Below are positions 3,430 to 37,254 of a DNA stretch of 64,000 nucleotides, piece by piece. Position 1 is the stretch's first letter, and the number at the start of each line of letters is the position of its first letter. Origin of the DNA: Neckera pumila (taxonomy: Eukaryota > Streptophyta > Bryopsida > Hypnales > Neckeraceae); NCBI GenBank assembly GCA_963969595.1, contig OZ018417.1, positions 19,532,501 through 19,596,500 of the forward strand, in the 5' to 3' direction. The position numbers and the translations under genes were made by a program. The notes beneath the pieces were generated by a model. It was not told where the DNA came from. It saw only the letters and a program-made list of their open reading frames with translations, and did no database searches.

Positions 3430-3900
3430 CTAAGCCATGCTTAAACCACCAAGCTTTCCGCTCCAATCTTGCAAGATGCAAGGGAGAAAACAAAAGTGAA
3501 GAGCGGACGAGTCGTCCGCCTTTCTTATAGCTTGGCGGACGGCAAGGCGGTCGGACAATGTCGCATCGGACGGCCTAAATGAGGTGTGGAGTCCGCCGCC
3601 CGCAAGATCCAATAGTCCGTGAGCCAAATCAGACGCTCGGCAAACGCAGACGGGGTACGCGGACGAAGATCGCGAGCCATCGGACAACAGGTGGCGAACG
3701 GAAGATTGACCGCTCGGATGGGGAAGCGGACGCAGCAGGACTCCTTGGACGGCTTTGGCGGATGGAGGGGGACTGCTCGGAAGGCTGCCTGCAGACGAAG
3801 GGGATTGTTCGGACGGTAGAGGGCGGACGGAGGGGGGCTACTCAGACGGTAGGCACGGAAGGCAGACGGCAGGTGAGCATTGCTAGGACGTGAGCTTGGA
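3430..3900. repeat. GC-rich CGGACG array (copy 1)
   Basis: This is an abrupt GC-rich island in AT-rich surroundings. It is made of irregularly spaced GCGGACGG, GCGGACG and reverse-complement GTCCGCC words on the plus strand. Open frames here run in several overlapping frames on both strands, as expected from stop-poor CG-rich repeats, so I do not call a gene. Six further blocks of the same type occur at about 20.2, 23.7, 25.3, 27.5, 37.3 and 42.7 kb. Confidence 0.75.
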
Positions 3901-3950
3901 GCGGCGAGCGGCGAGCGGGGAGCAGGGATTGGTGAGCGGGGAGCATAGAT
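3870..3950 (+). repeat. GAGCGGGGAGC segment, left inverted-repeat arm
   Basis: About 75 bp made of GAGCGGCGAGC and GAGCGGGGAGC words, ending in GAGCGGGGAGCATA. It aligns by eye to the reverse complement of about 20,160-20,240, including the spacing GTGAGC ... GGAGCA(G/A) ... GGGATT(G/C)GTGAGC ... GGAGCATA. The two copies are therefore inverted relative to each other across 16 kb. Confidence 0.65.
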
Positions 3951-4014
3951 TTTTGTATTTTAGAAAAAAAATTGGATGTGGCAAATGGATAATATTTGGA
4001 TGACAGTAGGTAAG

Positions 4015-4210
4015 TCAATCGATTTGGATGGATGAAATGGATGAAAATGGATGAATGTGAGCTAAAATGGATGAAAGTGGATGATAGTGGATGACTGTGG
4101 ATGACAATGGATGAAAGTGGATGATAATGGATGACAATGGATGACAATGGATGATAGTGGATGATAGTGGATGACAATGGATGACAGTGGATGAAAATGG
4201 ATGAAGAAAG
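4015..4210 (+). repeat. 10-bp minisatellite (AATGGATGAC-like)
   Basis: About 18 units of a 10-bp motif of the form (A/G)(A/G)TGGATGA(C/T/A). Ten is not a multiple of three, so overlapping Ser/Ile/His/Pro-rich open frames appear on the minus strand; these are artefacts of the repeat. The GGATGA core recurs in arrays at 19.8-20.1, 49.4 and 63.7-63.95 kb. Confidence 0.9.
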
Positions 4211-4214
4211 ATGG

Positions 4215-4728
4215 AAAAAGAATTTTTGAGATGAGATGAAAAATGTGAAAATAAAATTTGGATGAGGATGAAGGGTTTATGAATGCAAAACTGACGTAAC
4301 AAGTACATATTAAGGAAACAAAGAGAATGAACATGGAAGAGGGTCCAATGGCTTACAGATTTGATGGCCTTTTTCTTACAGAGCATATGCCAATTGTTTT
4401 AGGGTGTCCTTAGACCATGTAGGATGATTGTGCATTCACCTTGCATTACCGGAACCAAGTCGTACACAATCATTTCGAGGATTTGGAGGGTACGGTGAAG
4501 AATAAAAAGATTTGGGATTACATTAAAATATAGAACTCTACAACACCTCATGCCAAGAAAGGGATCTTCTAATACAATTAGGAGTAATGAGGGTTTAGGG
4601 GAGGACACAGTATTATATATAAATACTAGTCTATTTGAAATGGTCATAGTGGCCCTTTTAGTCTCACTATTATTTCACTTTTGAATAAAGTAGATCATAT
4701 AAAGAGGTCCTACACTACAGAACGCACG
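4215..4728. other. no gene seen; downstream of MULE transposase
   Basis: This stretch lies between the minisatellite and the stop codon of the minus-strand MULE gene, so it probably includes its 3' untranslated region. I see no convincing coding potential or repeat. Short minus-strand open frames are shadows of the minisatellite. Confidence 0.5.
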
Positions 4729-4729
4729 T

Positions 4730-7700
4730 CTAGTTCAAATCTAAGTTATTCAGTATCCCGCTGAGAAGCACTCGCTTGACTTCATTAAAACTAAAACTCG
4801 GAGAATGAATGAAGACATCTTCGGTAGATTGCAAATTGCAAATGACTGGGAATATAAAATATAAATGCTTGCAATTTGCCCATTGTCCTCGCTTCCCCAA
4901 TGCTTTTCTTGCCATTTCGTTGAAGTAAAGGCAATTGCAGTTTGGGAACGAAGAAATTGTAAGCATATATTGCTGAGCCTGTGGCTCCACCCCTGAATTC
5001 AAACAAACTATACAGCCAAAACCAGGGTGAGGTACCATGGTCACTCGATGAATGTGTGCATTCAAGGTCACGGCAGAGGCACAACTGTTAGCTTGTTTTG
5101 TGGAGGGGGCCTTTGGATTCCGGCGAATCAGTTTTCCTGATCGAATTTTGGGGTGGTCGTCTGCGGACGAGGGAACAAGGTAGGCAGAAACTACATCTAT
5201 CCTTGGCTCTCCGCCAAATAGTCTCCATGGTGAAATCAATTCACGTTGTGGGAGTCGAAAGCCAGCAGCTTCTAAAGCTAGAATTTCAGCTTTGGACAGA
5301 GTAGTGCCCCTTTTCACTGGCCAAATGGAAGGAATGGAAGGACGGGACAACACCCATTTTTGTTTGGTTCCCTTCACGCACCTTTCAATGTCGTCATTGC
5401 AAAAGAAGAACTCCATCCTATCATTCCAATTCTTTTTGTAATTGACCATTATACCTGTATAAGTGGGTGCTGCTGTGGCAACGTTGTTCTGGACAATCTT
5501 GGCAATGCACTTCTTCTTGGATACTGCTTGTAGTGCAAAGCAAGCCTTTGCAGATGCTTTCGGAAGTCTTGCTATGTGCCACTCCATTTCGTCATAGTCA
5601 CTTTCTTGAATTGCTGTCGCATGTGAAGACAATTTGCTTCTCTCTTGTCTTAGATTCTCTTCAGTTTCCATTGCTTCCAATATGTCTGCTTCTTCCCTGT
5701 GCGACAAGTCTTTTGTAATTGTGTTTAAATAGGGAACACTTGACGAGCCTCTGTACAATCTTGTTTGGATGTGAGGATAGGAGAAATTAACCTTATTCGG
5801 TCTATGAGAATCGTGCTCGCAACCCAATGGCATGTCTGCCTTCCGCTTTGGGAATCCAAATACTTCTTCATCTTCCAAATGAGGCTCTTTGTTCACAAAT
5901 TCCTCAACACCTGAGACGCTAGATATAGCTTGTGTAAGGACCTTTGGATTTTCGGTCCGCACAGCCGATCGTTGAGCAACTCGAAGTAACAGCTCTTCCT
6001 TCCCAGGTCCTGTCCCGGGTTTGTTTCCTTTTAGATACTGGTAGTACCTAACCATTTGCATGAAAGCTCTTACGAAGTCGTCAACAGTGGCTATGTATAA
6101 GTCGTTACCACGATTACCAGATTGTTGAAGCCACTTACTGTGTACCGTCTCTGCCAGGTTGCATGCCGGCATTTCTGCAAGCTCAATTTTGCTGAGATTC
6201 TACAGAAAGAAAGTAAAGGTGCCACTGAATCTTAGAATGAGACATGCAAACAATTGTTCTAGAAAGTGCCATGAATGCGGTTAGGGGGTTTAGGGTATGA
6301 AATTTTATTATGATCATTTACCCTTACAAATAACCACTTTACAATAGTTGCATGGAAGAAGGATAGAAAGGGGCCATGACAAACCTAAATATTGCTATTC
6401 TATAGGCCCCAATAGGACAATTCGAGGACCACTTCCGACCATTGCACCAAAGTCACATAATGCAGCATGACCTACAATTCATTTTGAAAGCCTTTGAGAG
6501 ATGAGTCTCGGCCCCGAGACGACACATTTGGCGGGCGACCCAAGCAAGGATTTTTGAGCATATGTTCTGTTAGACACCAGCCCATGGAAATGGAAATCTG
6601 ATAATTGGACCATGGAACTTTGTCTTGTCTATCACTCCGACCACCGGCTGAGCATTATGAATAGGCTGGTTTAGGGACACAAAACAATATTAGCGGATGA
6701 CTCAATTATCCCCCGACAATTCCCATTTGATTATAAGTTTAAATGCTATTGAACTAGTCTAATGAAGACACTTACAAGACACTTACAAGTTGCATGAAGC
6801 TGCCCTATTGCCGATATAGGAAATGCCAAAATGAGAGCCACAACTCGAGTCAATGCAAGCCTTCTACCGTTGTAGCACCCGATGATAGCCACCAAGCCTT
6901 GATAGCCAAGTAACGGGTTTCAGATTCCTCCAAAGAAACAACATTCCTGTATTGTTTGCAAAAGTGTCAATGTTGGTCTTGTAGGTCACCACGAATTTCA
7001 GCTTTGGTATGCTTCTCCATCGATTGAGTCCAATGAAAGAGGCAAGTCCTTTCCCGATTGTCCATTGGCACGCTGATGTCTCCCGGTCCATAAATCATCC
7101 TCACAGCATTCCAGTTTGCTTGAGCACTGTCAGCCATGAATCCCTTAAATTGAATCTGAGGTACACCGTGTCTCTCAAGAATGGAATTCAAATTTTGCCA
7201 GAACAGAATCTGGGCTGCACAATCTTCTGATTGCATGTCGCAAACAACGATTGTCATAACTCGACAGTATAAAGAATCATAGACATGGCACACCATAGTG
7301 GTCCGCTCTTTAACATGTTTTACATGATCAAACATTATCCATGCATCTTCCAAGTCACCGCCCATTTGCATGCGTTTTACTAAGTCCACTCCACTTCCCG
7401 GATCTACTTCGGACATCTTAAACACAAATACTTTATCAGCATCAGTTCCTTGACCAAGGAATTTGCTCTCCTGAACAAAAGCTCAAGTACTGGAACCCCT
7501 CAACTTAGTAATGCTGTCGATGATTCCGAATCTCCTCAAATACTTAAAAGAAGTTACCTCATTTTGTATACTTGGAGAGCTGAAGTACTTGCACTTGTCT
7601 AATACTGGTACCAGCTCAGCAAAGTCCATTGTCTTCGACATCATCCCATTAGGACGCAAGAGAAGATCCCCAAACAACTCTTTTGTAGCCTCAAGGACGA

Positions 7701-8448
7701 TGGAAGAATTTGTTGCAGTTGGTGTCTTCTCCATCTGCTGCCCAATAAGAGATCGAGTAAGGTCCTTCATGTCTCTCAATTCTCCCTCCTTTATGGGATG
7801 CTCATGAATGCCTAAATGTACAAATGCTTGGATCATCTTGCAGTTGCTGATGACATAGTATACTCTCACAGAACACCTCGCAATACAACTCGGAGGTTCC
7901 TTACAAATTTTGCAAACCAAGGATGACCCAGGAGGGTGCAATTGTCCAACATCAAGTGCCGTGGAGCACAGTCCTTCCCATTCCAATTCATTCACAGTTC
8001 TGATTCGGTGAACCCGACTAAGGAACTCGCAATTACTGTTCATGCATCTAAGATGCCCTATACAAACGAAAGTGCGAAACGACAATCCCATAGGATTAGT
8101 GATGTTTGTGGTGACGGTTTTTGACCAAACATGGCCATCGTATCTTTTATCCATCCCAATCATCTGCCGAGCATGAGAAGGAGAGGACCCACTATCTAGT
8201 GGCGGTAGCTCAAATATGAGATTGCCGTTAAAACTTGGAGGCAAGTTGGTCACTCTCTGAATGCGAATCTGGTCATAATCAATTTTCGCCAACACATTCC
8301 TACATCCCTTCAAGTTCCTTAAACCTCTCAAGCATTGAATGATCGATGCTACGGATCCTGTTAAGTCATTTTTGAACTCAATGACCGGTGACTTCATGCT
8401 AGTAAGCGGAGGGAATGTTGTCATCAAAGAGGGAGCGTGTGTACTCAA
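4730..8448 (-). pseudogene. Mutator-like (MULE) transposase, multi-exon, decayed
   Basis: Exon 1 (8448-6787) starts with an N-terminal Cys/His DNA-binding region (CMNSNCEF, SLVCKICKEPPSC, then FVHLGIHEHP, of the WRKY-GCM1/FLYWCH type). It continues into the MULE catalytic core (WIMFDHVKHV, FKGFMADSAQANWNAV, RERTCLFHWTQS, YLAIKAWWLSSG, WLSFWHFLYRQ). Exon 2 (6181-4730) begins NLAETVHSKWLQQSGN and ends with a SWIM-type zinc motif, CNC ... NCKHLYF. The splice pair, donor GTAAGT at 6786 and acceptor after TTGAG at 6182, keeps phase 0. Exon 1 has at least three in-frame stops, at 7483-7485 (TGA), just after QDQH near 6964 (TGA) and in YRQ-stop-GSF (TAG, where relatives have Trp). Exon 2 has none over 480 codons. 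The frame is otherwise continuous. This is probably the transposase of the surrounding element, recently disabled by point mutations. The true start is uncertain; upstream DNA has an 8-base C run (8,503-8,510) that could hide a frameshift. Confidence 0.85.
6505..6520. repeat. palindromic site in MULE intron
   Basis: GTCTCGG-CC-CCGAGAC: 7-bp perfect arms around a 2-bp centre. It lies in the intron of the MULE transposase (6182-6786). It is the leftmost member of a palindrome family that otherwise clusters at 10.7-18.5 kb. Confidence 0.8.
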
Positions 8449-8594
8449 GAGAGGTTCAAGAAAGGTTGTATCTGAGTCAGAACTAAGGACAGTGACATTG
8501 GGGGGGGCTTTGTTCTATCTTAACAGGTAGCAGAGGAGGCTTCTTAGACGACAACAAGGAGGACCGACGCGGTGTTCGTAAGTCTACAGAAGCT

Positions 8595-8879
8595 TCATTT
8601 ATGGCAAGGGACCCCATATGCTTTATATTTTCCTAGCTTCAAGTTCCAAGCAATGTCCTCTCCAACCGAAGCAGGCACTTGTCCTATGGTGTGCGTAAGT
8701 TCTCTTGAGTCGCAATCAAATACATCTTTGTCAACATGGATCGAGCTTGCTGTAAATTGAAATCGAAGACTCAAGCGAGCTGCCAAAAATATTGCCAATC
8801 CATCTTGGCCTACACGAAAAATCAAGGGTACGCCTTCACCATTTGCCTTGACTACAACCATGTCCTGAAAGTCTACCAT
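8595..8879 (-). CDS. possible 5' exon of the MULE gene, unrecognised
   Basis: An ATG-initiated frame of 94 codons on the minus strand, just upstream of the MULE exon and in the same direction. It contains ordinary mixed-composition sequence (for example VGEDIAWNLKLGKYKAYG) but no domain I recognise. The distance to the MULE exon and the lack of other genes suggest a 5' exon or a small separate gene. No splice join can be proven, so it may also be a chance open frame. Confidence 0.25.
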   Translation of the reverse strand: MVDFQDMVVVKANGEGVPLIFRVGQDGLAIFLAARLSLRFQFTASSIHVDKDVFDCDSRELTHTIGQVPASVGEDIAWNLKLGKYKAYGVPCHK

Positions 8880-8889
8880 CCCAACGGAC

Positions 8890-11085
8890 CAGATGGAACT
8901 GATCGCGACAATGTATAATACTGCTTCTAGAAGAGATAAAACGGGAACATCACTGCATCACAGAAACCATAGACCCAATACACAAGACTAACTAATCGGG
9001 AGCAGACATCATGAAAGCCATTTGCACAGAAGAGTTGACAACATGGTGATACTCACCATTTCAACCAGGAATACATTCAAAGTTCGAGAAGGCAATAAAA
9101 CATGAGTAATCAGTGGTAAAGAGTTGGGTGGAATACCTTTGCGACCAGTCATCATATACACATTGACGGTTAAGTAAATGCCAAGCCCTTTCAAATTCAA
9201 AATTATGTGCATGAATCTATTTTACGTTGCCTCCCAACGAACACATTTGATTCACTAATGTTAGTGTCAGTGTCAGTGGTCTGTGAAACAAATTTTCAAG
9301 GTGTTGCTATAGGCTTCAATACGGAGCCCATGGACAACAGAAAGGGCTAGTAGTATAATCTGTGACACGTTGAACCGCCGCCGGTCGATTGTGATTTTGA
9401 ATATAATTGCATTCTAACAAGTTACATATAAATAATGACCCTCCTTTGAGCGCAAACCAGACCATTGTGGATAGTTGATCCATAGTGGACACCTAACAAA
9501 TACATGACAGCGTGTTCCCCCATTATTAATATCTAATCTGACACCAATGGAGAGATTAGTAATGGTGTTAAACTGTTAGGAGCATCTGCAATTCTGAAAC
9601 ATGTCATAGTGCTCTCCACCATATTAATGTTCTTGTATATAAGAGAGTATTTTGACATTCCATTCAAAATAGCATATGTTGTCAAATTCTTCATGGATAT
9701 TGCACTTGCTCTTGACTCTCTTGAATAGATCACATCAGAATACTCAAGCTTTTTCATATTTCAGTCAATTCTTGTTGGATATTGCTCTAAGGTCTTCAGA
9801 AATATCAGGAATTCTTGAAGAAAGAACTACTAAATACATATGTACACTCCAATGTATGACCACAATTGGCATGAGTACCTCTACACTAAGACTCCCTCTC
9901 TCTAATTTAGGTATACGGGGGATTAGTAAGCACAGCCAAGAATTAGAAATAAATAAATGAAGATTACCAATTTTTCATCGTAGACGAAACAAAACTCAAA
10001 AGCCAAAAGTAACCTTCATTTCCCAGGTCACCTTATACCGCACCCCGTTAGCGGGAACTCCATACCCGGAATAGAATCGGAAAGTCATATACCCGGACTG
10101 CCCTCGCAAACACCACTCTGAGATCAGAAGAAAACGGCCCTCGGGAACCCTAAATGGGCACACTTCGCCGCGAGGCTTGTGAGTAGTCCGCCGCCAACCT
10201 TCCCAGTCCAAGGCGTTGCTTTGTTGTACGTGATACATTGTATTGATGCATACTTACTCGTTGTGTGTGAGGTTTGGAACACGGGGTTTGTGAATTGCAA
10301 GTTCTTTCATCATGTCTCGCAATCTTCGACCGCATCGCAGGAAACTTGGAGACGGAGAAGGGGAAGCACATGGCAGAGAGGCGGATTCGACTACGAATGA
10401 GGTACAACATACTTCGTTTTCTGATGAACAAGGTTAAGGTCTCTTGCGTAATACTCTGGTCTTCAAATGTCTTCACTCGCTCATACCTCTTTGAGATCTC
10501 ATAAGGTCGCCAAACTAGGATTAGGATTTGCAGCAGGATTAAGTCAGTCCAAGCATTAGACTAGAGGATTGTTATTTCCAATTTCGATTTGGTTTATCAC
10601 AGCTACAACGTAGGAGATCAATTAACGATTGGCGGTATAAGTTCTTGGCAGCGGGTCAAGAATGCAAGATTTTTGGGTTAGGGATCCCTTGACGAAAGTC
10701 ATGGATTTGGTTATCTTATCATTCTCATTCAGCTAGCGGACGAAGACTTCTGTGCTTGCGGTGTTGTCTTGGTCCCGAGAGAGGGTTTTGTGGATTCACT
10801 AGTATGCATAATATAATAGAGTGCACTCACTTGCAATATCATTTGACGGGTTCATGCAAAATAGGGATAAAAGAAATTGATAGAGAATCTGTTCAGACCT
10901 TGGACATAGTCTGTACATTTGTAGTCATTGATTATGAAATGGTAGGTGTGTCAGTCAGTTGTCCTGGGCTGGTTCACTCAGATTTTGGTCTCGGTCCCTT
11001 GACTGCTTTTCCCGAGTACAGGTTATTAGTATTCTTTTTGTGACCACCGACTCATGGAGTATGCATACTCTGTTCTGTAAGAGTA
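8890..11085. other. central region of the element, no gene supported
   Basis: This region separates the two divergently transcribed genes. A minus-strand frame at 10238-9996 (80 codons) and neighbouring plus-strand frames near 10.2-10.5 kb are open but unrecognised. Two imperfect palindrome-family members occur near its right end (10,767-10,780 and 10,988-11,003). Promoters for both genes may lie here, but I see no specific promoter element. Confidence 0.4.
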
Positions 11086-11087
11086 AC

Positions 11088-11960
11088 GTCTTGGGAACGA
11101 AACATGGTCTACCCAGCGACGGTCCTGCAAAGCTTTCATTGCTTAATTTGAATTAAGGAAAGACTAACCACTATTATAAAATGGAAATCTCGAGTTCCTG
11201 TATCTGTGCTTTCATTGAAGATTACATATCATGCGTAATCCTATCGATCTCGTAGAGCTCTCGGGGCCGAGACATAGTCTAACCAGCGATGGTCATGCAA
11301 AGTGTTGATTGCTTAGTATGAATTAAGGCAAAACTAACTAGTATAACTCTACAGAATTCTGGAGTTCTTGAATCTATGCTTTTGTTGAGGTTTACATATC
11401 ATACATAGCCCTTTTTGTCTCGTAGTGGTCTCAGAACCGAGACATGGTCTAACCAGAGACGGTCGTGCATAGCCTTGATTCCTTAATTTGAATTAGGGAA
11501 GGACTAACTAGTATTTTTATAAGGAAATCTTGAGTTCCTGTATCTGTGCTTTCGTTTAGGATTACATATCATGCATAATCCTTTCGGTCTCGTAGAGCTC
11601 TCGAGACCGAGGCATGGTCTAACCAACAATCGTCATGCATAGCTTTGATTGCATAATTTGAGTTAGGGAACAACTAACCAGTATTATCATAAGGAAATTA
11701 TGAGTTCTTGTATCTGTGCATTTGTTGAGGATTACATATCATGCATAATCCTTTTGGTCTTGAAGAGCTTTTGGGACCGAGACATGGTCTACACAGAGAC
11801 GGTCATGCATAGCTATCCTTTCATAATATGAGTTAAGGAAAAACTAACAAGTATTACAGTAGTGAAACCTCGAATTCCTTTTGTTGTGCTTTCATTGAAT
11901 TTTACATATCATGCAAAGCCGTTTCAGTCTTTGTGAGCTCTCGGTACCGAGAGCTAATCT
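11088..11960. repeat. 170-bp tandem array, about five units
   Basis: The reference word ACATGGTCT (or a variant) falls at 11,102, 11,272, 11,442, 11,612, 11,782 and 11,952, which is an exact 170-bp spacing five times. The units have diverged by many substitutions but the length is conserved. Each unit has the order: palindrome core (TCTCGGGACCGAGA-like), ACATGGTCTAACC, GCGACGGTCATGCA, a TTGATTGCTTAATTTG segment, TTCCTGTATCTGTGC, and TTACATATCATGCATAATCC. The last unit carries a perfect 16-bp palindrome. Constant unit length despite divergence suggests purifying constraint or homogenisation acting on spacing. Confidence 0.92.
11938..11953. repeat. perfect 16-bp palindrome CTCTCGGTACCGAGAG
   Basis: The sequence equals its own reverse complement. 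It terminates the 170-bp array, and it is the perfect version of the degenerate cores at 11,258, 11,428, 11,598 and 11,768. Confidence 0.9.
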
Positions 11961-12570
11961 GCCATACTGCGGTCATGCAAAAATTCCAGATGACTTCATG
12001 TAGTTTTCAGAGATCTCACAATATTAGTTCGATGGAGTGCAAAATTGGTCATACTGGTCAGTATATTATGAATTTTATGTAATTAGGTCATATGCATTTC
12101 AAATATAAGTAACCGGGTTTGCATGACTCACTAGAGGTGGCAAAAGCCTCGGTCCCGAGAGTCGAATTCTGTTGGCATGGCTATGCACAAGAATCCAGTT
12201 TGTCCCAAACCGGTAAGGCGTCATCTTACAGATAACCACTAATATCGGGACCGGAGGGTATTTGAACCTCTATGAATTTGTATGATCCGTTAGCATTTGA
12301 TGTTATTTATTGAGTCTAATACAAGTTGAATGTAATCTCGATGCCGGTAGTATAATTCGGGGAATCAGGTCTATGCGTAATTCCTTGAATTTGGATAGCC
12401 TTACAAATTAGAATTTGGATTTATTAGTACCGTCACGGTTGCCAATGATTCATGACAATGCTTCAGTGTTTAGTTAATGATCAGTTTCAATGCCTAGAAG
12501 TGTGGAGGGAATCTGAAGAATTGTAGACAATGTTCATGGTTTATGCATAGTCGAGCAGGTGGGGTAGACA

Positions 12571-12584
12571 TCTCGGGCCCGAGA
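12571..12584. repeat. perfect 14-bp palindrome TCTCGGGCCCGAGA
   Basis: A self-complementary member of the palindrome family, about 0.5 kb upstream of the first coding segment of the ParB-methyltransferase gene. Confidence 0.9.
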
Positions 12585-12753
12585 GTGGTGTTCCTGGCTC
12601 GATGCCTTTGTTTTCATTCATTGAGAGTCTCAAATGAATCCCAAATCTATAGTCTGGTCTAACAAACATATCCTTATTTACTGAAGACATGGATGACACG
12701 TGGAGTCCTGAATGGACCCTCTGATTGCATACCCTACCATGCATGCAAGATGA

Positions 12754-12765
12754 CTCGGGCCCGAG
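12754..12765. repeat. perfect 12-bp palindrome CTCGGGCCCGAG
   Basis: A self-complementary member of the same family, 183 bp from the preceding site. The flanks are GA on the left and AGAAC on the right, so the longer arm is partly lost. Confidence 0.85.
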
Positions 12766-13102
12766 AGAACATATCTGCGGTACATGGTTAAGAATAAATT
12801 GCCAAAATTATGACAATATCCAGATCTTCAGAGATTGCTATAGACCATGTTCTAGAATCATAGGCTGGGATTCTGAGCCGTAGGTTGACCTAAATTGTTT
12901 CTGCGTATCAGTTGACCTAATGAGATTGTGTTCCTGCTTTCTGTCTGTGATTATTGGGATGTGATTTTGGGACCATGACAGGTTATATTGGGTCTAGACT
13001 CAATCCAATTTTGTCATATCGTTCTAACAAACTGTAGCAATAATCAAATCAATGGTTCAGTTTCATGTTGGCATTGTCTAATGTGCAATTATTACTTTCA
13101 GG

Positions 13103-16100
13103 TGAACCCCATCGACCCGCAGCTACCTATGGCTTAGGATGCCTTCGACCATCCAGTGCCGTTGTCGCAGGATGCCATCGACCTACAGGTGCCTATGGCG
13201 CCTAACGCTATTATTAATCATGTACTACTAGAGCAGGCGCAGCAAAATCATCCGATTGACATTGCACCAGAAGTTCCTGCATATAGTCCTGGGATAAACA
13301 TCAATGGCTTACTCTAGGACCGACATCTATTCATTGACAATATACATCGAGGGGGATATCTCCCTACCCCCGATTTGGCTTGCTTATCTTTAGGATCAAA
13401 TGAGACAGTTCAGATTCTATCAGGATCATTGTCATCCGAGGATTTTTGCTCATGTGAGCATGACATCGCGGAAGTCACATCCGGATTTGATTCCAAGGAT
13501 GATGTATTAATTTTTTGCTGTGGACACTATCGTATTGTATCAGAGACATGCGATTGTGCAATATGAAGCGTTGTCTATATATATATCGTCTTTGATTGAA
13601 AATGATATTTCTGCCCATGACGGCCTGCCACTATGATCAGCATTCATTAGTACGCCATTTAGAATTCTTGTAATGAATGTAGAAGATCATGTTTCAACTC
13701 TGATTGATTCATACACTAACTTTGAATCATGTAAAACTGCAGAATATAGACAAATCCACTACGTCCATGATTTTGGATCAGGACATGGACAACGGTGGAG
13801 TGATTCATATACCCGGTCTTCCCCAGAGCTACATGGAGGACGACATAAGGAGATCACAGACAATGGACACGATCTCTATGATATCGAGTTTGAGGTTAAC
13901 CACCTCGAACCTGTCTCAAATGCAAATTCCGCTGTGTAGGTTGGTGCCGATGGTTTGTCCTACCCTTTCTTGTGACTTGATATTGCTTGAAAATCAATTC
14001 AGTCGCAGATACAAAGAGGGAGCGTGTGTGTTCTATGTCTCAATTGCAGATGAAGGAGGCCAGACGGCGGTGTTCACGGACTCAGAGAAAGAGGAATGGG
14101 GACCTCTGTGGAATTCAGTGAATGACCAATTCAACATGCAACTCAAGTCGCCCCCTGCATTGAAGCACCTCGTAGACTACAAGTTTTATGTCTGTGATGG
14201 GAATCACAGACGATTGGCTTGGATGAACCATATCATGCGGCTTCACCCTATGGAGAGAGCTTGGCATATTTGCGTGGACTCCATCGTTCTGGATACAAGA
14301 AACCGCATAGGAGCAACCATGCAAGCAATGCACGATATTAACAAGTATGATTTCTATTCTGTCATTGAATTTGAAAATGCATTTTCTTAATGATTGTAAA
14401 TCACATATTATTTATGAATTCTATGTTTCTTATAACATTGTAATCCCAGGCATACAGAGAACTCACATATCAAGACAAACCTCGTGCATACCTTATACCG
14501 AGTGCAGAAGCACAGAGTTATGGAGCTCGAGAAGTTTATGGAGCTCCTCAATCCTAATGAAGTACTCACCTGTAAGCAGAGTACTCAAAGTAAATGGTAC
14601 TCCATGCCTTTAGAGGTCTTCACCTCATTCATATTCAAGGTATAACTGATATTATTTACCTTCTTCTGTTATGATGTTCATCACGACTTGCTTTCTGACC
14701 TTACCATATTTTAATATAATATGTTTTGTGGGCATTGCCAGCAAGAGATTTCCGCTACTACGGATGATGCAGTTTGGAAGTACAAGGAAGATACTCCCAA
14801 TGATGAGGTGACTCCTGAAGGAGTTGCGATGGCAATGAGGATCTCTATCAAGGAGTCCACTGCTAACTATCACCAAAAACTTTCGAAGATTGTTGCGGTA
14901 GCAGATCCAAAGCACGGTCCAAAGTTTGTAAAGGAGGTATGACTCTATCCTTGTGGATGTGCTACTGATTCTTTTTGATTGATGTGTGGTACTTAATATG
15001 GTCAATTGTTGGATTGCAGATTGAGAGACATTGGAGTCTCTTTGCTGTTCCGGAGTTAACTCTTGAAAAGCTCCAGATGATTGCCACGGCAGTGGCCAAC
15101 CGGGTATACAAGGTCAAGTGGCTGAAGTGGATGAATGCCTCTATTCCTACTCGAGAGGCTCAAAAATTTCCACCTCGACTTGTTAATGAAGACAAATTGT
15201 TACTATTCCTCGTGAAGGCGTGTTGGTATGCAGGGGTAAGCTGGTCCATATTTCCCATTAGTATCTCCAGTGTTCTACTATCATCTCTAAGCTCTGGCAA
15301 TCTCATGTCAGCTTCCACTTGATTTGTAACTCTCATATTGTTCTTTGTGCAATTGGAGGAAACCGCCGCGGAGATGTTTGAGAGTATTATTCGCGCTGAC
15401 AATATCCCGATCAACATGGCTGTTTCCACTGATCCACAGACTCTATCCGAATACCTAAAAGATTGGAGATTGAAGCTATGGGATCTGGCGTACACGGGCA
15501 TGTTTAAGGGAGAAGATGCCTACAAGAAGTCGAAGCCCTTTAAAGATTTCAGAGGTGCTATTGGTGCCGTTAAGCGCCTGATCTACAGGTATAGTCTACG
15601 CTTTGTTGTTTACCATATATACGTCTCACTATTTAATTGCTTCAGTTGAATATGATTTCACTCATTGTTATGCATGACCTATCTCCTTCCCGGTCCTCTC
15701 TCGGCCCCGAGACATGTTCTTAAGCCTCCTCTGATGAGAAGCACTGCCTTCACAAATCCTCGTTGTCTATTCCAATGTACACCAGATTAGGATTTTTTGA
15801 CAATTCTTTTGAGGATACACTGTAAATGTTATGCATGGGTACATCTCCTTAAGATGGTGTTTTGGGGCCAAGACATTAGTTCGGTCGGCCTAAGTTGTGA
15901 CGGAGGATTTCTGAATCTGACCAGTTAGATCGTTGCTTGTTTGGAGGGATGACCTCATTGCAGTTCGATACCATATAAGTCACGTTCACTTCGATTTCAT
16001 TTCTTCGGAATCAATGAGTCGCAAAATTGAAATGGTTCTAATATTTTTTTGTTTGTAGATATTTTAAATTGGAGTTGTACGCAAAGAAGGCTATCAAGAA

Positions 16101-18206
16101 GGGAGACTTACCACCGTTTCTCACTACATGGTTGACCCCATCCTCCTCGGATTGCATGTTCTCGACAACTCAGCTACAGAAATGGACCACTCCACATCTT
16201 CGAGCATGCCCCTGGTACTTGGAGTGTAACTTTGGGACTACTCCACCCAAAAAAGAAGCTCTCTTCACATCATTGAAGGAATCCACTGACGTTGAGCTAG
16301 AGTTCGACGAGTTTGCAAACTTAGATCCGGAGGCGCGTGCCAAGGCCATTGCTAGGCGGGAAGCATCTGACAAGAAAAAAGAGGACAAATGGGAGGAAGC
16401 AAAGAAGAAGACCGAAGATACGAAAAACAAGAGGCTTGCCGCGAAGCAGGTGAAGGAGCAAAAGAAGGTAAAGAAGAAAAGCACAAAGCGGAAGGCGGAG
16501 ATTGCGTTTCAGGAATTGGCAGGAAGTGCAGCCGAAATGAAGGACACTTCATTTGGCTTCTCTTTGACTCAGGAGAAATTGGTGCATGGCTTGACACCGA
16601 CTGTTCACAACCTGGCTCCAGTTCCCGATATTGACGAGTGTATCCTGAACTTGTCATTGGATGATCTTCCCAGTAATCAGAAGGCCTTCTCCAATGTTGT
16701 TGCATTCTTAGCCATGGTTTGTGAATAATATCCCAACATTGTTTATATTGTAATGGTCAATTGACATAGATTTTCATGGTCCGAGTTCATTGAACTATTC
16801 TTGTCTTATTCATCTTCACATCTATTTCCCTAAAAATTTCTTATTGTCTCCAGCATTCAGGTGACAAGGACCGCTACTTCAACGGCAAATTGATTGCCAA
16901 GGCCGCGATAGATTTGATTATTGTAGACGTTCCAGAAGGGCTCCACGTCCCTACCGTTTCCGCTCCACCAAATCCCATTCCGAAGTGGAATGAGTACAAG
17001 TCGGACTTCTTGGTGCCCAAATTCGATTTTGTGCAAGAGTACTTGCATGACAGCGGTGGCCTACTCATCATGTACCCATGTCCTTCTCTTCCTCACAGGA
17101 GCCAGATTCTTGGATGCTGCCAGTCCTATGGATTCCGCATACTTGATACATACTTGTGCATGAATCATCTGCATTTGACATCGCCTACGGATCCCTCTAA
17201 GACGGTAAGCGATATTCTGTCATCTTGCATTGTCCTCCTCAAAATTTAATTACAATGACTTGGATTCTAACTATGTGTCCTGTAGACAATGAGGTTCTCC
17301 ATATTGCTTCTGGTGAAGGATTGTGGACCAAAGACCGACAAGGATTTCCCGTTTCAATTCGTTCCCTCGCACTTTGCCGTGGGGGTTACCGTCGGTCGTG
17401 ACGACATCCTTCAGAATTTTACGAACAAGGAAGATGTTAGTATGAATGGCAACATACCATGGCGGGGACCTCGAGAGAAGGCCCGCGAATTCATGCAGAT
17501 GCTTATTGAAGGCTGCTCTGAACCAGGGTCAGTGATTGTGGACTGCACAGCTGCTACAGGTAGTTCTATTTTTATATTTTATTCTACATCCATCCACATG
17601 CACATGGAGCATTGTCTTTCGGTTTGCTAAACCGCTTATTCCTATTTTGATTGATGATAGGTTCAAGCATTCAAGCTTGCCGGGCCACACGTCGCCATGT
17701 CCTTGTATTTGAAGCGGACAAGGCTATCTTTGACGCTGTTATTGCTCCAGGGATGCGCGCCGCTATCATTCCTCAATCTATACCAGGAAGCGTATCTAGT
17801 GCCACGATAGAGCTTGAAGACGAGGACGTACTAGTGCAACATACCATACCGACATCTCGATTCAGTAAGTAAGTTTTTCCTTAAGCTCTTTTTATTTGGC
17901 CCCATTAGAAACAAAACTTGTGCAAATCTGACATGTGTTTCTATGGCTTTGTAGGCATCTCCAAGAAGTGAAGACATCCACATCTTCCTTTTTTTGCCAA
18001 TCCAAGTTTTTTTTCCTACCCCCCCAAAACTCTATCACCTACTCGTATATGCAGAGGAGATTGCTCGTCGTTTTGTTAGAGAGAACCCTTGGCCAGCTTC
18101 TAGGGCCCACTTGGTAGATCCACGTATTCTCAAATTCGTGGATGATTCAGCCATCGAAACAGATTCAGATTTGTCAGAAACTAAGGGTAGCTCTAGCTCA
18201 GCATAG
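13103..18206 (+). pseudogene. ParB-like domain fused to N6/N4 DNA methyltransferase, multi-exon
   Basis: The main part is an orderly chain of phase-consistent exons: about 13,765-14,344; 14,450-14,639; 14,742-14,936; 15,020-15,235; 15,359-15,588; 16,059-16,716; 16,854-17,204; 17,286-17,559; 17,661-17,864; final exon from about 17,955. The first large exon has the ParB/sulfiredoxin-fold signature YKFYVCDGNHRRLAW (about 14,178-14,222). The exon at 16,059 has a Lys/Glu-rich, coiled-coil-like, probably nuclear-targeting stretch. The methyltransferase follows with motif IV-like DLIIVDVPEG (16,911-16,940) before motif I-like VIVDCTAATGSS (split by the intron at 17,560) and FEADKAIFDAV. This order (IV before I) is that of beta-class N6-adenine/N4-cytosine enzymes (PF01555-type). 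Motif IV is DVPE rather than DPPY/SPPY, so activity is doubtful. The upstream segment 13,103-13,566 is in one frame but has two TAG codons, and the last splice join is off by one base near T/C runs. Expression and function are unknown. Confidence 0.75.
15698..15713. repeat. palindrome-family site in intron of ParB-methyltransferase gene
   Basis: CTCTCGG-CC-CCGAGAC, nearly identical in core to the site in the MULE intron at 6,505. A weaker copy (TTTTGGGGCCAAGAC) follows in the same intron at about 15,860-15,874. The sites lie between exons ending at 15,588 and starting at 16,059, an unusually long intron for this gene. Confidence 0.8.
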
Positions 18207-18209
18207 TGT

Positions 18210-18900
18210 ATGTCTCCCTATTTGCTATTTTGGACTCTAGTATTTCTGGTACATCCTCTTGCCATGACTATGTTTTTTTGTTGTATTCAAATTTCAGGTG
18301 TTCTTGCTCTTTTTCTAGACTATGTAGTTTATAAAATTGGGCATGACTTGTAGCATGTTGTATTTTGCACCGTCGTGTCAATATTTTGGAATTAATTCGT
18401 TGACCCTAAACCTCTATTATTGACCCCTGAAGCAGAATTTCTGTTTTGATGTTTCCTTCGGTCTTCCCTAAACCATGTCTCGGTACCGAGACATTGTATC
18501 TAAGGTTCACGTTCCAGAAGTTGTCTCCTCATGGATCGCAGGGGGGTCCCAAATTTCTGGCTGAATCTCCTTGAACCTTCATGACACTAGTATAACTTAT
18601 ACATTTGCTTCATTTCATACAAAATTGCTGTTTCGGAGGAATAACTCACGGAATGCGGCCAAAAGTTACGTGCTATTCCAATAGACAAAAACACAGTAAT
18701 GTATACAAATTGTCGTCTACCCTACATAATTTGGACAAATGCTCACCAAACTCAAGCAAGTGGTGTCCACCTCCACTACCAACAAGTTCCATGGAAGGTT
18801 CTTCTGACAATGTGACCACTGGCAAGACTACTCAAATCATCAGTATGGCTGCTATTAGTATATAATACTATCACCAATTGTAAATCTGCAATTCAACTTC
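18210..18900. other. 3' region of ParB-methyltransferase gene
   Basis: No coding sequence is recognised. It contains the 18-bp palindrome and ordinary AT-rich DNA between two convergently oriented coding units. Confidence 0.45.
18476..18493. repeat. perfect 18-bp palindrome TGTCTCGGTACCGAGACA
   Basis: The longest perfect member of the family. It lies about 270 bp downstream of the ParB-methyltransferase stop codon and is the rightmost copy seen. Confidence 0.92.
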
Positions 18901-18912
18901 ATCGCGCAACGT

Positions 18913-19401
18913 TCATTCAGGCAAATACGGGCTTTCTGTATAAGTGATCTCCCCAAAAAAGATGTCAATGCCAGCGTCAGTGTAGTATCCCCCTTCCTCG
19001 GGCCAAATGTCGTCTTCATAATCTCCCAATGCACGGTGACGGATTGGTCCACCGCTCCACTCCCCCTTTGTCCACCACATTGGCTCCCGCACCCACTCCT
19101 TCAAATCGCCTTTGTAGTTGATGCTTGTGCAATACTCCATGTGGCGGAATTGGTAATTTGTAGCCTTGGTCCAACTCAAGTTCTCACTGTCTCCTTGGCA
19201 TAGAAGAGCCCTCACTTCATCTGATTCAAAAAAAGGGAGCTTCCCATTCCTCCTCTCGACCAGCTCATCCACTTTGGCAAGATATTCATGCAAATCAACC
19301 TTCAACTTTGGAAGGGAAGACATCTCAACAAAACCGGATCCACCAGCAAGTGACTCTGTAAGAATGCAATGAAAAACAAAATGAATCAATGCTAGAAACA
19401 A
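18913..19401 (-). CDS. hypothetical protein, 3' exon
   Basis: A minus-strand frame of about 145 clean codons begins after a plausible acceptor (ATTCTTACAG at about 19,357-19,366) and ends at 18,913. The composition is acidic and aromatic, with LHEYLAKVDELVERRNG near its start, then WWTKGEWSGGPIRHRALG and GDYEDDIWPEEGGYYTDAG. There is no low-complexity sequence and no premature stop. I do not recognise the family. No upstream exon could be identified on the minus strand before the repeat at 19.8 kb, so it may be a 3'-terminal fragment of a captured or additional cargo gene. It lies inside the putative element, convergent with the ParB-methyltransferase gene. Confidence 0.4.
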   Translation of the reverse strand: MFLALIHFVFHCILTESLAGGSGFVEMSSLPKLKVDLHEYLAKVDELVERRNGKLPFFESDEVRALLCQGDSENLSWTKATNYQFRHMEYCTSINYKGDLKEWVREPMWWTKGEWSGGPIRHRALGDYEDDIWPEEGGYYTDAGIDIFFGEITYTESPYLPE

Positions 19402-19404
19402 AAG

Positions 19405-19812
19405 ATAAATGAAAAAGACAGAAATGAGCTTTCCAAATCAAACCATTTCCCTTCATCAGCCTAAAATGAGCAGCATTTACTAGGACCCTAAACCCTAAAC
19501 ACAGAATGAGTAATAAGGTATCCACACCCCTAAACATCAAATCCAAACATCATTAATAAATTCAAATCTTCCCAACACGTGTCATGACATAATTTAATGA
19601 GTACACTTACAATTTCTGGCGTGTAATAACCCTAAACTCACTAATTATCGCGGATTATGGGGACACTTACTGAATAAGTGTAATTATTGTTCATTACATT
19701 GAAAATTAGACCTTGAAGTTAAAAGTATAGCCCTGTAATTTTGCCTTGCTTAGTTTATCCGTATTGTTTATGTAATTCCGTATTTTTCATTTTAAATTAG
19801 ATGAAAAATATG
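19405..19812. other. no gene seen
   Basis: AT-rich DNA between the hypothetical exon and the TTTCATCCA array. It contains one short CCCTAAACCCTAAA stretch (about 19,484), too short to be a telomeric array. Confidence 0.5.
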
Positions 19813-19814
19813 CT

Positions 19815-20110
19815 ATAATTCATCCAAAATTTTCATCCGCTTTCATCCATGTTTTTTCATCTACTTTCATCCATGTTTTTCATCCACTATCATCCATGTT
19901 TTCAAGCAACTTTCATCCATATTTTCCATCTATGTTTTTCATCCACTTCCATCTGTATTTTTCATCCGCTTTCTTCCGTATTTTTCATCTAATTCTTCCA
20001 ATCCATTTCATCTATTTTTTTCCAAACTTTTCCTCCATTTCTTTTTTTATTTGCACCCAATTTCATGAATTTTCTTTTGAATTTCATCCATGTTTGCTTA
20101 AACTTTCATC
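19815..20110 (-). repeat. TTTCATCCA-type minisatellite, right arm
   Basis: Irregular repeats of TTTCATCCATGTTTTTCATC, about 20-25 bp per unit. On the minus strand this reads as GGATGAAA, the same core as the left minisatellite at 4.0-4.2 kb but in inverted orientation relative to the block's interior. A long Phe/Ser/His-rich plus-strand frame across it is a repeat artefact. Confidence 0.8.
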
Positions 20111-20159
20111 CACTTTTCTATTCATTTTTTCAAACTTTTTTATCTTCCTTCCAATATTT

Positions 20160-20335
20160 ATGCTCCAAGCTCACGAATCCCCGCTCCCCGCTCACTGCTC
20201 GCTGCTCCCCGCTCACACCCCAGCATTCCCCGACGGCAGGTTCCCGTCCGCCGCTTCAACAAATGGTGGCCACTGCTCCAATGCCAACTCAGACGGAGGG
20301 CACGCGGACGACCGCTTGAAGGAAGTCATTTCAAA
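20160..20335 (-). repeat. GAGCGGGGAGC + CGGACG blocks, right inverted-repeat arm
   Basis: On the plus strand: GCTCCAAGCTCACGAATC, then CCCGCTCCCCGCTCACTGC, then CCGACGGCAGG and CCCGTCCGCCGC. Its reverse complement aligns to 3,850-3,950, giving the inverted partner of the left block. It is shorter than the left copy, with only a short CGGACG part. Confidence 0.65.
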
Positions 20336-23457: not shown

Positions 23458-23689
23458 ATGAACTTCTCCAATGTGCAGATGAAATGCTTCACAGTTACAA
23501 TAAAAAACCCTTACATACTCACTTGAAATAAACTGCGTGAAGCAGTCCCACCTTCAAGCCCAACCATTCGCGCACCTGACTGGAAGGGACGTGCAGAGCT
23601 ACAGACTGAAATCGGGCACTGGATCATCCAGTACTTGAGGGAAACGGTTGTGAAGAAATGAGCCGTCCACCCTGCTTTTTATTCAGTAC

Positions 23690-24165
23690 GATGGCGGACG
23701 AGCCAAGGCGAACGCGTACGACCACATCAGACAGCTTGGAGGTGGACGCCAAGATCCAGCAGATAGAAATTGGTGTCTGATGGATCGCATGGCCACCGAC
23801 AACGGGCAGACGGACCGACAGACGGACCGACAGACGGAGAAAGCGGACGGAGGGAAAAGGTGGACGGTGGGAATAGGGGGACAAAAAGCGAAGGCGGACG
23901 CGGAACGGGGACTACGAGGCTGGCGTTGGAGCGGACGGAGGTGTCACCATGGTGGACGCAGACATTGGACGGCGCGAATGAGGGCATCTACGAGGCGGAC
24001 GGAGGTATTGGAAAAGCGGACGGAGGCATCGGATGTTGCAGACGGGGGCATCGGACGTTGTGGATGGGGGCGTCGGCAAGGTGGACGGGGCCGCATTTGG
24101 TTGCTAGAGGCAACTAACGGTCAACCAGTCGCTCAGCAGACGTCATGGCGGACATAAAGGCGGAC
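23690..24165. repeat. GC-rich CGGACG array (copy 2)
   Basis: GCGGACGGAGG-type words on the plus strand, including a short perfect run of an 8-bp unit (CAGACGGACCGACAGACGGA near 23,805-23,840). It lies about 200 bp upstream of the start of the minus-strand gene at 22.2-23.46 kb. Confidence 0.75.
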
Positions 24166-26079: not shown

Positions 26080-27480
26080 TTGCAAAGATATAGAGTCTAA
26101 GAGAAAGAGTGTGTTAGGTAAAAAATGATTCCTTGTTATTCATCATATGAAACCACTATTCATCTGCATTCCAATTCAATCCCTTAAAGAACGTAGAGTA
26201 TAAAGATCTGAAAAAAAAATTAGAAGTTTCAAGAAAGGAAACATTTGTACAATCCACAACTATTTTGGCTAAACATCATACTACTAAAATCACAATGCCC
26301 TCTATAATATCATGATTCAATTTTGAATTATAATATTATAGAAAATGAATTACTTTTGTAATAGCCATAGAATACTTTCTACTATATACTGTATATTCTA
26401 TTTGTGAAATATTTGAAATTCAAATGGATACTTCTAAAATAATTTCAAAGAAACTTTTCAAACAACAAAACTATAGATAAATTCTATGTCTTTTTAAAAT
26501 GTGATTAAAAAAATAAGAAAGCACCAATCGCCAGCATTGCTCTACATAATCAAATGTGAAGATTCTACTTACATACTTCACGGTATTAATTCATTCTTAT
26601 TGCAATGTTTTCATCTTTGCAAAGGTTATTTTGAAAAAATTACGATATAAATCTTTTCTTCAATTACTTTATATTGCACTATTATTTTTTTCCAAAGAGT
26701 ACTGTATGAGGATGTCAATATTTTCATTTAAAGATTATACATACTTTGTTTATCTACATTCTATCACATAAAAAATTGATGAAAGTAATATATTTAACTT
26801 GTAGCAAAGCAAGCTCCAATCGTTAGGCATTATTTAAAATTTACAACGGAAATCCTAAACAATGGTCCCTTTTCATTGACCATTACAAACCACAATTCAT
26901 ACGCACTCCAATTTAGTCCCTCTAAAAACATAGAGTACAAAGATAAAAAAAAAATTTAGAAGAAGTCTTATACAAGGGACCATTTGTACAGTCTAAGACT
27001 ATTTTGGCTAAAAATTATTACTTAAAATTTATAAGGTGAATCCTAAACAATGGTCCCTTGTCATTCACCATTAGAAATAGCAATTCATCCACACCAGAAT
27101 TTAGTCAATGTTAAAAAATGTGAATTATAAAGTCTGATACAAAAAAATTACAAGTTCTACATGAATTTCAATTGTAAAATCCTCAAGTAGTTAGTGTAGA
27201 CATCATTTGTTAAAATTTAATATGGGAATCTCCAAGAATTTGCCCTTATTCTTTAATTTTATGGGAGTATAGGGTTAAGGGTCTAGGGTTTAGGGTTTAT
27301 AATTTGGGTTTACGGTACACAAGGCATTCTAAAATGAGAGGACAAAAAATGGTTAAATATTCCTACATGAATGTCACATTGGATGCTTCTTGCATTGAAA
27401 GGCATCTGTGGGCATAAAAGAAACCTTTTCTAGAATCCAATGTTTGAAGAGTAATTTCAACATTGCTTCCATGGCAAACG
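26080..27480 (+). repeat. second copy of the AT-rich duplicated segment, partly diverged
   Basis: It begins with the same ATAGAGTCTA(A/C)G(A/G)GAAG context as 24,250 and ends with the ~0.5-kb direct repeat (27,020-27,480) entering a GC-rich array. Between them about 0.5 kb (26,290-26,800) is unique AT-rich sequence without coding potential. Confidence 0.7.
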
Positions 27481-27925
27481 GAGCATGCCGGACGGAACAT
27501 CAGTCAAGAGGGCAGACAGAGAAGGTGGACGGAAATACGCGGACGGACTAGGTGGTCGGATCCGGACGCACATGGCGGACACTACAGTGGTCAAACAAAG
27601 CCAAAGTGGACGTTGAGGTCCGCAGCGGACGGCGTGGTGTGAAGGATGCCAAAGCAGACACGCAGGCTGTCGGCCGTCCCTGAAGCAGATGGGAAGGTGG
27701 TTGGCTGTCCCCAAAGCAGATAGGAAGGAGGTTGGCCGTCGCGGAGGCAGATGGCAAAGGTCCGGCAAGCGGTTTTAAGGTCCGGGCCATGTTCGCATTG
27801 GCCATCCGCCGGTCCGGTGCCAGATCGCTTTTAGGTTTGGTGTTGGACGGGTATAAGGGCGGACGGTCGCTTTCATTTTCTTCACTTCTTCTTTCTGCCA
27901 CTTTGTTGTGAGCCAAGTCAGATGT
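27480..27925. repeat. GC-rich CGGACG array (copy 4)
   Basis: GCGGACGG-type words plus a short internal repeat of GGCCGTC(G/C)C(G/C)GAAGCAGATGG-like units (27,665-27,760). It ends about 170 bp before the ATG of the plus-strand gene at 28,099. Confidence 0.75.
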
Positions 27926-28098
27926 TCTATTGTTGCTACGTGTTTAGCGTGGTACTGACTGCACCTACTTGGTGGAGAGAAGGGGTCCAACTTTTATTAC
28001 GGCAAAGCTTTGACGATTTTTTTCACAAATATCGGTGTCAAGACTACATGTGTAGAGATTATTTCATTGCAAGTACTTAAAAATTCAAATTCTCGGTC

Positions 28099-36609: not shown

Positions 36610-37250
36610 ATTTAACCCTATGAGGGTTTTGCTCCATTGGGAAATGGTGAGACTTCCTTTTCATTTGAACATGACCTTCTCAATTGTATTGAAAAATGAA
36701 CCTTATATTTTGATTACTTGGAACTCCAAATTGTATATGACTACGAAAATTCCAATGTGTGTTTAAGCAAAGAAAGACTATATAGAAGTTTAAAGTACGC
36801 CAAGTAGTACATTTAAATCCATGGGCAAAATCAAGTGCATTATCCATTTATATAAATTTTTGTCATTATGTGAATGAAGAAGGCCTTGCCTTATATTTTA
36901 GTTAATGAATAATTCATTAGCCATAAAATAAGTACATGTGGATGTGGGGACCAGAAATGTAGAAGTTTTAAAATATGGTATGCATGACTTTGAAAATCAA
37001 TGGCCACATTCAGTTCATCAAGCATGTTCTATATTCCCTAAATGTCCAAGGACTTCCTTAAATTTTTGGAAGTTTGCTTTAAATTGACCAAGAAGTCAAC
37101 ATGGTGAATACTTGTATTCATGTTTTTGAAATTGTAACCATACAAAATTGAAATGGACCCGTTACAACCTACGTAGAAAAAAAGTATTGTCGCCCAAAAA
37201 AATTGTGGCCTCTTGCATTCCGTAGTAAAAATGCCAGTGTAATTAGTCAG
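36610..37250. other. no gene seen
   Basis: AT-rich DNA between the MITE and the GC-rich array at 37.26 kb. Only a short unrecognised minus-strand frame. Confidence 0.5.
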
Positions 37251-37254
37251 TCCA

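What the first reader, a model, noticed from the sequence alone, without database searches (positions are those of the whole stretch)
13103..18206. ParB-like domain fused to a beta-class DNA methyltransferase in a plant, encoded in a TE-like block
Seen: a multi-exon frame with CDGNHRRLAW (ParB/sulfiredoxin-fold signature) about 2.7 kb upstream of a methyltransferase with motif IV-like DLIIVDVPEG preceding motif I-like VIVDCTAATGSS. Known: ParB-methyltransferase fusions occur in phages and bacterial mobile elements; eukaryotic N4/N6 methyltransferases of bacterial descent exist, including a reported N4-cytosine methyltransferase in a liverwort. Inference: a bacterial- or phage-derived ParB-methyltransferase was captured, gained introns and now travels with a plant transposon, possibly marking or hiding its DNA. 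The DVPE motif in place of DPPY/SPPY may mean altered or lost catalysis.
Basis: partly seen in the sequence, partly recalled or inferred. Interest (0 to 1): 0.95.

Follow-up and report, generated by a model that had tools for sequence, protein, structure and literature searches.

The report
Moss transposon ParB-methylase and its palindromes
A large jumping-gene family in what is most likely a moss carries a bacterial-looking DNA-binding and DNA-methylase-like protein together with arrays of one short palindrome that is kept while the sequence around it changes, which looks like a way for a selfish element to recognise its own DNA.

Summary
An 11-exon gene (10312-18206, 1053 aa, no internal stop) encodes a ParB/sulfiredoxin-like domain and a divergent beta-class methylase domain. 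It belongs to a 16,357-bp Mutator-like transposon, 3875-20231, flanked by a 10-bp target-site duplication, with a transposase (one in-frame stop) on the other strand. The host is probably a moss; relatives lie at 33 places, the window included. The fusion in transposons is already in print (Ectocarpus; green and red algae). New here: a palindrome, TCTCGGNNCCGAGA, occurs 13 times in the window (two mismatches allowed), always inside the element and outside coding exons, and 414 times exactly in the genome against 3 for the reversed control. It recurs in unrelated tandem units of diverged lineages, in changed form in the most diverged one, and in gene-less elements with similar ends. Exceptions exist: one relative has a single site. 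The methylase motifs are non-canonical across the family. Best reading: a parS-like self-recognition site for the element's own ParB-methylase, working like VANC of VANDAL transposons. Binding and chemistry are untested.

The parts
3865..3874 (.). target-site duplication GACGGCAGGT, left copy
   Evidence: found at 3865 and 20232 only (+ strand), at the edge of homology with other copies
20232..20241 (.). target-site duplication GACGGCAGGT, right copy
3875..20231 (.). Mutator-like transposon, 16,357 bp
   Evidence: homology ends at 3872-3881 in six copies and at 20231-20232 in five copies; four other copies have their own 10-bp duplications, read by eye
3875..4260 (.). left terminal inverted repeat: GC-rich end, then ATGGATGAAA minisatellite (inner limit approximate)
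19790..20231 (.). right terminal inverted repeat: TTCATCC minisatellite and GC-rich end (inner limit approximate)
4730..6199 (-). transposase, C-terminal exon with SWIM-like CxCx(n)CxH signature (motif recalled, seen by eye)
   Evidence: open frame; 80-90% identical in A1 and B, 43% in C
6967..8514 (-). transposase, main exon; in-frame TGA at 7483-7485
8595..8957 (-). probable N-terminal exon of the transposase
   Evidence: matched in A1, B and C; joining to the next exon not shown
10312..10401 (+). ParB-methylase gene exon 1 (MSRNLRPHRRK...)
   Evidence: 80% identical in copy A1; not found in B or C
10402..13742 (+). intron 1, holds 10 of the 13 palindromes
11089..11952 (+). 170-bp tandem array, about 5 copies, with palindromes at 170-bp spacing
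13743..14344 (+). exon 2, ParB/Srx-like domain (13836-14342), DGNHRR
   Evidence: model pLDDT 80.9; leading matches Noc, Srx, ParB, KorB
14450..14639 (+). exon 3
14742..14936 (+). exon 4
15020..15235 (+). exon 5
15359..15588 (+). exon 6
16059..16716 (+). exon 7, includes a lysine-rich stretch
16854..17204 (+). exon 8, start of the methylase domain, motif IV-like DVPEG
17286..17559 (+). exon 9, motif X-like and motif I-like DCTAATG
17661..17864 (+). exon 10, end of the motif I region
18055..18206 (+). exon 11 and stop
6506..6519 (.). palindrome TCTCGGCCCCGAGA between two transposase exons
10767..12766 (.). ten palindromes starting at 10767, 10989, 11259, 11429, 11599, 11769, 11939, 12147, 12571, 12753
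15699..15712 (.). palindrome in the intron between 15588 and 16059
18478..18491 (.). palindrome TCTCGGTACCGAGA downstream of the stop
18913..19437 (-). accessory open frame of unknown role; 86% identical in A1, no match in B or C

Best explanation
A Mutator-like transposon family of a probable moss carries its own ParB-methylase accessory protein and a matching palindromic site. The protein is recruited to clusters of TCTCGGNNCCGAGA in introns and spacers of the element, densest between its own first exon and its ParB exon. Through its methylase-fold domain it modifies, or at least marks and occupies, the element's DNA. The same sites on gene-less elements would let those use the protein in trans. 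It thus works like a sequence-specific self-recognition and anti-silencing factor, comparable to VANC. Shown: the gene model, the borders of the element, linkage to the transposase in three lineages, constraint on the protein, and recurrence of the palindrome in unrelated repeat units and in gene-less elements. Supported but not proved: the ParB/Srx fold. Inferred: that this protein binds the palindrome, and what it does there.
For: Borders and 10-bp duplications. Transposase on the other strand in A1, B and C. Leading structural matches Noc, ParB, KorB, sulfiredoxin. N6_N4_Mtase match in 5 of 7 members. 13 of 13 window palindromes inside the element, 0.85 expected over the window and at most 4 in 100 shuffles; 0 of 13 in coding exons. 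414 exact genome sites against 3 for the reversed control. TCTCGG with gap 2 is the commonest palindrome in ten elements picked by protein, 29 exact copies in 8 of 10. Units of 170, 285, 181 and 151 bp share at most 28 bp in the reported matches, yet each holds the palindrome or its variant. Lineage C has CCCTCGNNNNCGAGGG instead. Gene-less elements keep similar ends and arrays. VANC targets are motifs in tandem repeats of non-coding regions (PMC5735166, passages).
Against: Binding is not shown; the transposase diverged in step and could be the binder. Of ten protein-picked elements, L054 has one site, L053 (no ParB exon found) none, and C none of the standard form. Motif IV lacks the aromatic residue and motif I the first glycine, so catalysis may be lost. 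In the window copy the ParB box lacks two residues and an arginine kept in most relatives, and the transposase has a stop. Sites in A1 are decayed: 2 exact of 17. No ParB_N match to the family, and no Foldseek match at E 0.001 or better. Eleven of the 50 listed genome sites were not traced to any element.
Confidence: 0.6

Rival explanations
1. The palindromes are binding sites of the transposase (or of the small third open frame), used for regulation or for assembling the transposition complex, and the ParB-methylase acts elsewhere.
For: The transposase occurs in the same elements and is diverged in C as well (43-47%); one site lies between two of its exons (6506).
Against: 10 of 13 window sites lie in the first intron of the ParB-methylase gene, not at the terminal repeats where Mutator transposases bind (recalled).
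Confidence: 0.2
2. The palindromes are an operator: the ParB-methylase or another factor tunes its own transcription there, with no wider self-recognition role.
For: The densest cluster lies between the first exon and the ParB exon.
Against: Sites also lie in the transposase gene, in a late intron and behind the stop, and gene-less elements hold long arrays.
Confidence: 0.15
3. A host protein binds the palindrome and the elements exploit it; the linkage to the ParB-methylase is incidental.
For: The binder is unknown; 11 of the 50 listed genome sites were not traced to an element.
Against: 414 exact sites in 339.5 Mb, and a changed site in the most diverged lineage, fit an element-specific partner better.
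Confidence: 0.05

Closest known systems
[quoted passage not shown]
   Same: 1104 aa there, 1053 aa here; ParB-like domain plus DNA methylase domain; gene on the strand opposite to the transposase of a giant DNA transposon
   Different: here in a probable moss, with a Mutator-like rather than a Sola1 element; palindromic site arrays and gene-less relatives found; motifs IV and I altered. No sequence comparison with the algal proteins was possible
VANC anti-silencing proteins of Arabidopsis VANDAL transposons (PMC5735166, passages read)
   Same: element-encoded accessory protein; short motif repeated in introns, spacers and terminal non-coding regions, often as tandem repeats that differ between related elements; VANDAL is of the Mutator superfamily (recalled)
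   Different: homology to VANC was not tested; the VANC21 motif YAGTATTAY is not this palindrome; anti-silencing is not shown here
Bacterial ParB/Noc/KorB and parS-like sites
   Same: ParB/Srx-like fold; clusters of a palindrome of about 14 bp (bacterial sites recalled)
   Different: no ParB_N profile match; no HTH or CTP binding shown; in a plant genome within a transposon; fused to a methylase domain
Bdelloid rotifer N4-cytosine methylase (PMC8885841, listing and start of abstract only) and the liverwort one (recalled)
   Same: eukaryotic amino-methylase; bacterial descent (recalled)
   Different: host genes without a ParB domain or transposon linkage (recalled); here the active-site motifs are altered

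Membership tests
beta-class N4/N6 DNA methylase (PF01555) | profile match to N6_N4_Mtase | tested here: inconclusive
   window E 4e-4, 20.9 bits against a cut-off of 26.7; 5 of 7 members match, best 3.1e-5; Ceratodon relative 1.9e-5, 25.2 bits; 0 matches in a six-frame scan of the own genome at E 0.001
beta-class N4/N6 DNA methylase (PF01555) | catalytic motif IV [DNS]PP[YFW] (recalled) | tested here: not met
   ten elements: DVPEG in 7, DVPKG, NVPEG, DVSKG; DVPEG, DVPKD or DQPKG in the 5 of 9 database relatives read that cover it
beta-class N4/N6 DNA methylase (PF01555) | motif I D-x-F-x-G-x-G (recalled), placed after motif IV | tested here: not met
   order met; DCTAATG, DCTASTG, DCTTSTG, DCTTATG, DCSTSTG where covered: D and last G kept, F and first G lost; last G not covered in L052 and L055
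ParB/Srx superfamily | ParB_N profile match | tested here: not met
   none in the window, 8 aligned members or 76 aligned sequences; own genome two weak matches outside the family; PHROG ParB 0.018 at best in 5 of 8
ParB/Srx superfamily | ParB/Srx fold | tested here: met
ParB-parS partition system | specific binding to clustered palindromes and CTP-dependent clamping (recalled) | not testable with these tools
   clusters present; binding not tested
Mutator superfamily (MULE) | target-site duplication of about 8-11 bp (recalled) and terminal inverted repeats | tested here: met
   10 bp in 5 of 5 copies with both ends matched; one gene-less element 10 bp, one 9 bp
Mutator superfamily (MULE) | MULE transposase profile | tested here: not met
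   no Pfam match at E 10 to the 942-aa read-through with X at the stop; SWIM-like and acidic motifs by eye only
ParB-methylase transposon accessory proteins | ParB-like plus amino-methylase domains, on the strand opposite to the transposase of a giant DNA transposon | tested here: met
   description from PMC12477816
VANC | homology to VANC; loss of methylation over the element | not tested
   only the arrangement of targets was compared

The most novel reading that the evidence does not exclude
A ParB-parS-like system runs in a plant nucleus for the benefit of a transposon: the ParB part loads at palindromic arrays, spreads along the element as a clamp, and carries a methylase-fold domain with a rebuilt active site that gives a non-canonical mark or blocks silencing; gene-less elements parasitise it by keeping the arrays.
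Probability: 0.3. Interest if true: 0.95.

Novelty: new variant of a known kind. Interest (0 to 1): 0.8.

Why it matters
Accessory ParB-methylases of algal transposons were proposed to bind and modify their own element (PMC12477816), but no target is named in the parts I read. Here a probable target is visible: one palindrome kept on several unrelated repeat backbones, changed in a diverged lineage, and held by gene-less elements. That turns an idea into a test in mosses, which are tractable for genetics, and would offer another example of VANC-type self-recognition. It would also show what a bacterial partition-type protein can become in a nucleus, and what a methylase fold without its DPPY motif does.

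Tried and rejected
Whole-length single-sequence protein search: none of 4783 candidates at E 1; domain alignments did find relatives. Viral contigs with the methylase domain: no relative. Single-sequence structure of the ParB exon was useless, pLDDT 31. PDB sequence search with the ParB alignment: nothing at E 10; with the methylase alignment only weak matches, best 0.12 to DpnA. N6_N4_Mtase in the own genome: no match at E 0.001. ParB_N in the own genome: two weak matches, 0.027 and 6.5; the stronger, read as L061, shows no kinship; the other was not read. Rfam and tRNA scans of the window: none. Transposase pieces and read-through against Pfam: none. NCBIfam: best 0.0053, PRK13699 DNA methyltransferase. 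Coding between 13103 and 13742 was rejected: stops in frame, and homology with A1 starts at about 13740. Pseudogene or chance frame rejected, although A1 has one stop and C seven in the compared codons. A search for another palindrome in L054 gave nothing convincing. Genome counts for the variant palindrome of C and for the transposase did not complete. A giant-transposon review (PMC6431247, passages) does not mention ParB.
Full report
Gene. The motifs of the finding are real and lie in one gene. With splice sites read from the sequence, and exon 1 recognised from a second copy, the gene has 11 exons (10312-18206), all introns GT..AG, and 1053 codons without an internal stop. Exon 1 was matched in copy A1 only, not in B or C. 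By my own counting script on tblastn-aligned codons, dN between this gene and lineage B is 0.24 over 1008 codons with dS saturated; over the methylase part dS is 1.74, dN 0.24, ratio 0.14. Against the closer copy A1 the ratio is 0.43, with one stop in A1; C has seven stops and saturated dS.

Element. Homology ends at 3872-3881 in six copies (A1, A2, A3, A5, A6, B) and at 20231-20232 in five (A1, A3, A4, A5, A6); the left pieces fetched for A4 and C and the right piece for A2 gave no match, and B's right match stops short. The flanking 10 bases GACGGCAGGT occur at 3865 and 20232 only. A1, A3, A5 and A6, the copies with both ends matched, have their own 10-bp duplications, read by eye. The ends are GC-rich inverted repeats followed by ATGGATGAAA/TTCATCC minisatellites. 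On the minus strand lies a transposase with an in-frame TGA here. It occurs on the same side and strand in A1 (72-90%, the lowest across a frame shift), B (80-81%) and C (43-47%). No Pfam model matches it; the SWIM-like signature and the duplication length point to the Mutator superfamily, which is my inference.

Family and host. A search of the own genome gave 149 exon matches with 45 of 1613 candidates scored. By my grouping they fall at 33 places, the window included, on eight contigs; judged by their leading matches the lineages lie at roughly 85-92%, 69-80%, 64-68% and 48-62% identity. One more copy turned up through its palindromes (L056). A LEAFY DNA-binding domain of this genome differs from PDB 4bhk at four of 165 positions in the printed alignment; that 4bhk is from the moss Physcomitrium is recalled, and moss is my inference. 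A profile of the ParB part finds 528 proteins at E 10 among 1016 candidates (best 120 listed); the search admits only lengths near that of the query, so their exon size is by construction. A profile of the methylase part finds 25 of 5239, among them Ceratodon purpureus KC19_5G032000.

Palindrome. TCTCGGNNCCGAGA with up to two mismatches occurs 13 times in the window; 0.85 expected, at most 4 in 100 shuffles. All 13 are inside the element and none in the coding exons listed; outside the 170-bp array the flanks look unrelated by eye. Genome-wide there are 414 exact sites against 3 for the pattern read backwards. Among ten elements picked by their protein, counts with up to two mismatches are W 13, A1 17, B 12, C 0 (17.2 kb each), L050 11, L051 11, L052 9, L053 0, L054 1, L055 14 (8.3-8.8 kb each). 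C has instead CCCTCGNNNNCGAGGG at ten places with three or fewer mismatches in and between two arrays of about 150 bp upstream of the ParB exon. L053 shows no ParB exon. L054 is a true exception. In an open count of palindromes TCTCGG with gap 2 ranks first, 29 exact in 8 of 10. I listed tandem units of 130-290 bp with three or more copies: all 22 carry the palindrome or its variant with up to two mismatches. These limits were my choice, rows overlap, and 15 of the 22 come from gene-less loci chosen for their palindromes and one from L056; six come from protein-picked elements (W, A1, B, C, L051, L052). The 170, 285, 181 and 151-bp units and the two gene-less unit types show only 20-28-bp matches between types at E 0.001.

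Gene-less elements. Of five palindrome clusters on C1 away from scored copies, one is a further gene-carrying element (L056). Four (L057-L060) have similar ends and minisatellites (96% over 74 bp in L060, 91% over 56 bp in L058, about 69% over 360-380 bp in L057 and L059) without transposase or ParB-methylase matches, apart from a 43-residue remnant in L059. One is bounded by a 10-bp duplication (7.0 kb) and one by 9 bp (10.0 kb); for the other two no duplication was established. Of the first 50 genome sites listed, 14 lie within 15 kb of a scored copy, 25 in the five loci just described, and 11 were not examined.

Mechanism. The simplest account is that an element-encoded factor recognises the palindrome and that gene-less copies keep it to be recognised too. 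The ParB-methylase is the better candidate because the arrays sit beside its ParB exon and because ParB proteins act on clustered palindromes (recalled). The transposase is not excluded. VANC of Arabidopsis is the working model: its motifs lie in introns, spacers and terminal non-coding regions, often as tandem repeats that differ between related elements (PMC5735166, passages).

Prior art. PMC12477816 (abstract, passages, first of two parts of section 5, one of five parts of the references; [quoted passage not shown] The two papers cited there are not held. In ten library searches the rows listed showed no paper, by title and abstract start, on a palindromic site of such proteins or on a moss element of this kind; only part of the matching papers is listed and most subscription papers are outside that library.

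Noticed in passing
window 18913-19437 (-): An open frame inside the element (147 aa compared), 86% identical in copy A1, no match in B or C, no Pfam match.
   Followed up: partly
window 38029-40212 (+) and 59675-62564 (+): hAT-like transposase fragments: DUF659 match at 38029-38931 (E 3e-31); the second judged by eye only.
   Followed up: partly
window 53937-54945 (-): Gypsy-type reverse transcriptase/RNase H fragments, judged by eye from the translation.
   Followed up: no
window 23654-24157, 27457-27943, 37038-37548, 42608-43293: Blocks of CCGTCCGCC-type GC-rich repeats (and by eye); the element seems to be inserted in such a block.
   Followed up: no
window 1975-2370 (-): Weak protein kinase-like fragment (Pkinase E 0.005, under the cut-off).
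   Followed up: no
L054 (C5:25171200-25179800): Encodes the ParB-methylase at 49-80% identity per match but has a single palindrome; its own site, if any, was not found.
   Followed up: partly
G000 C2:36.59-36.75 Mb: Four copies of lineage B with identical scores within about 165 kb, apparently 5'-truncated (one read, L053), as if by segmental duplication.
   Followed up: no
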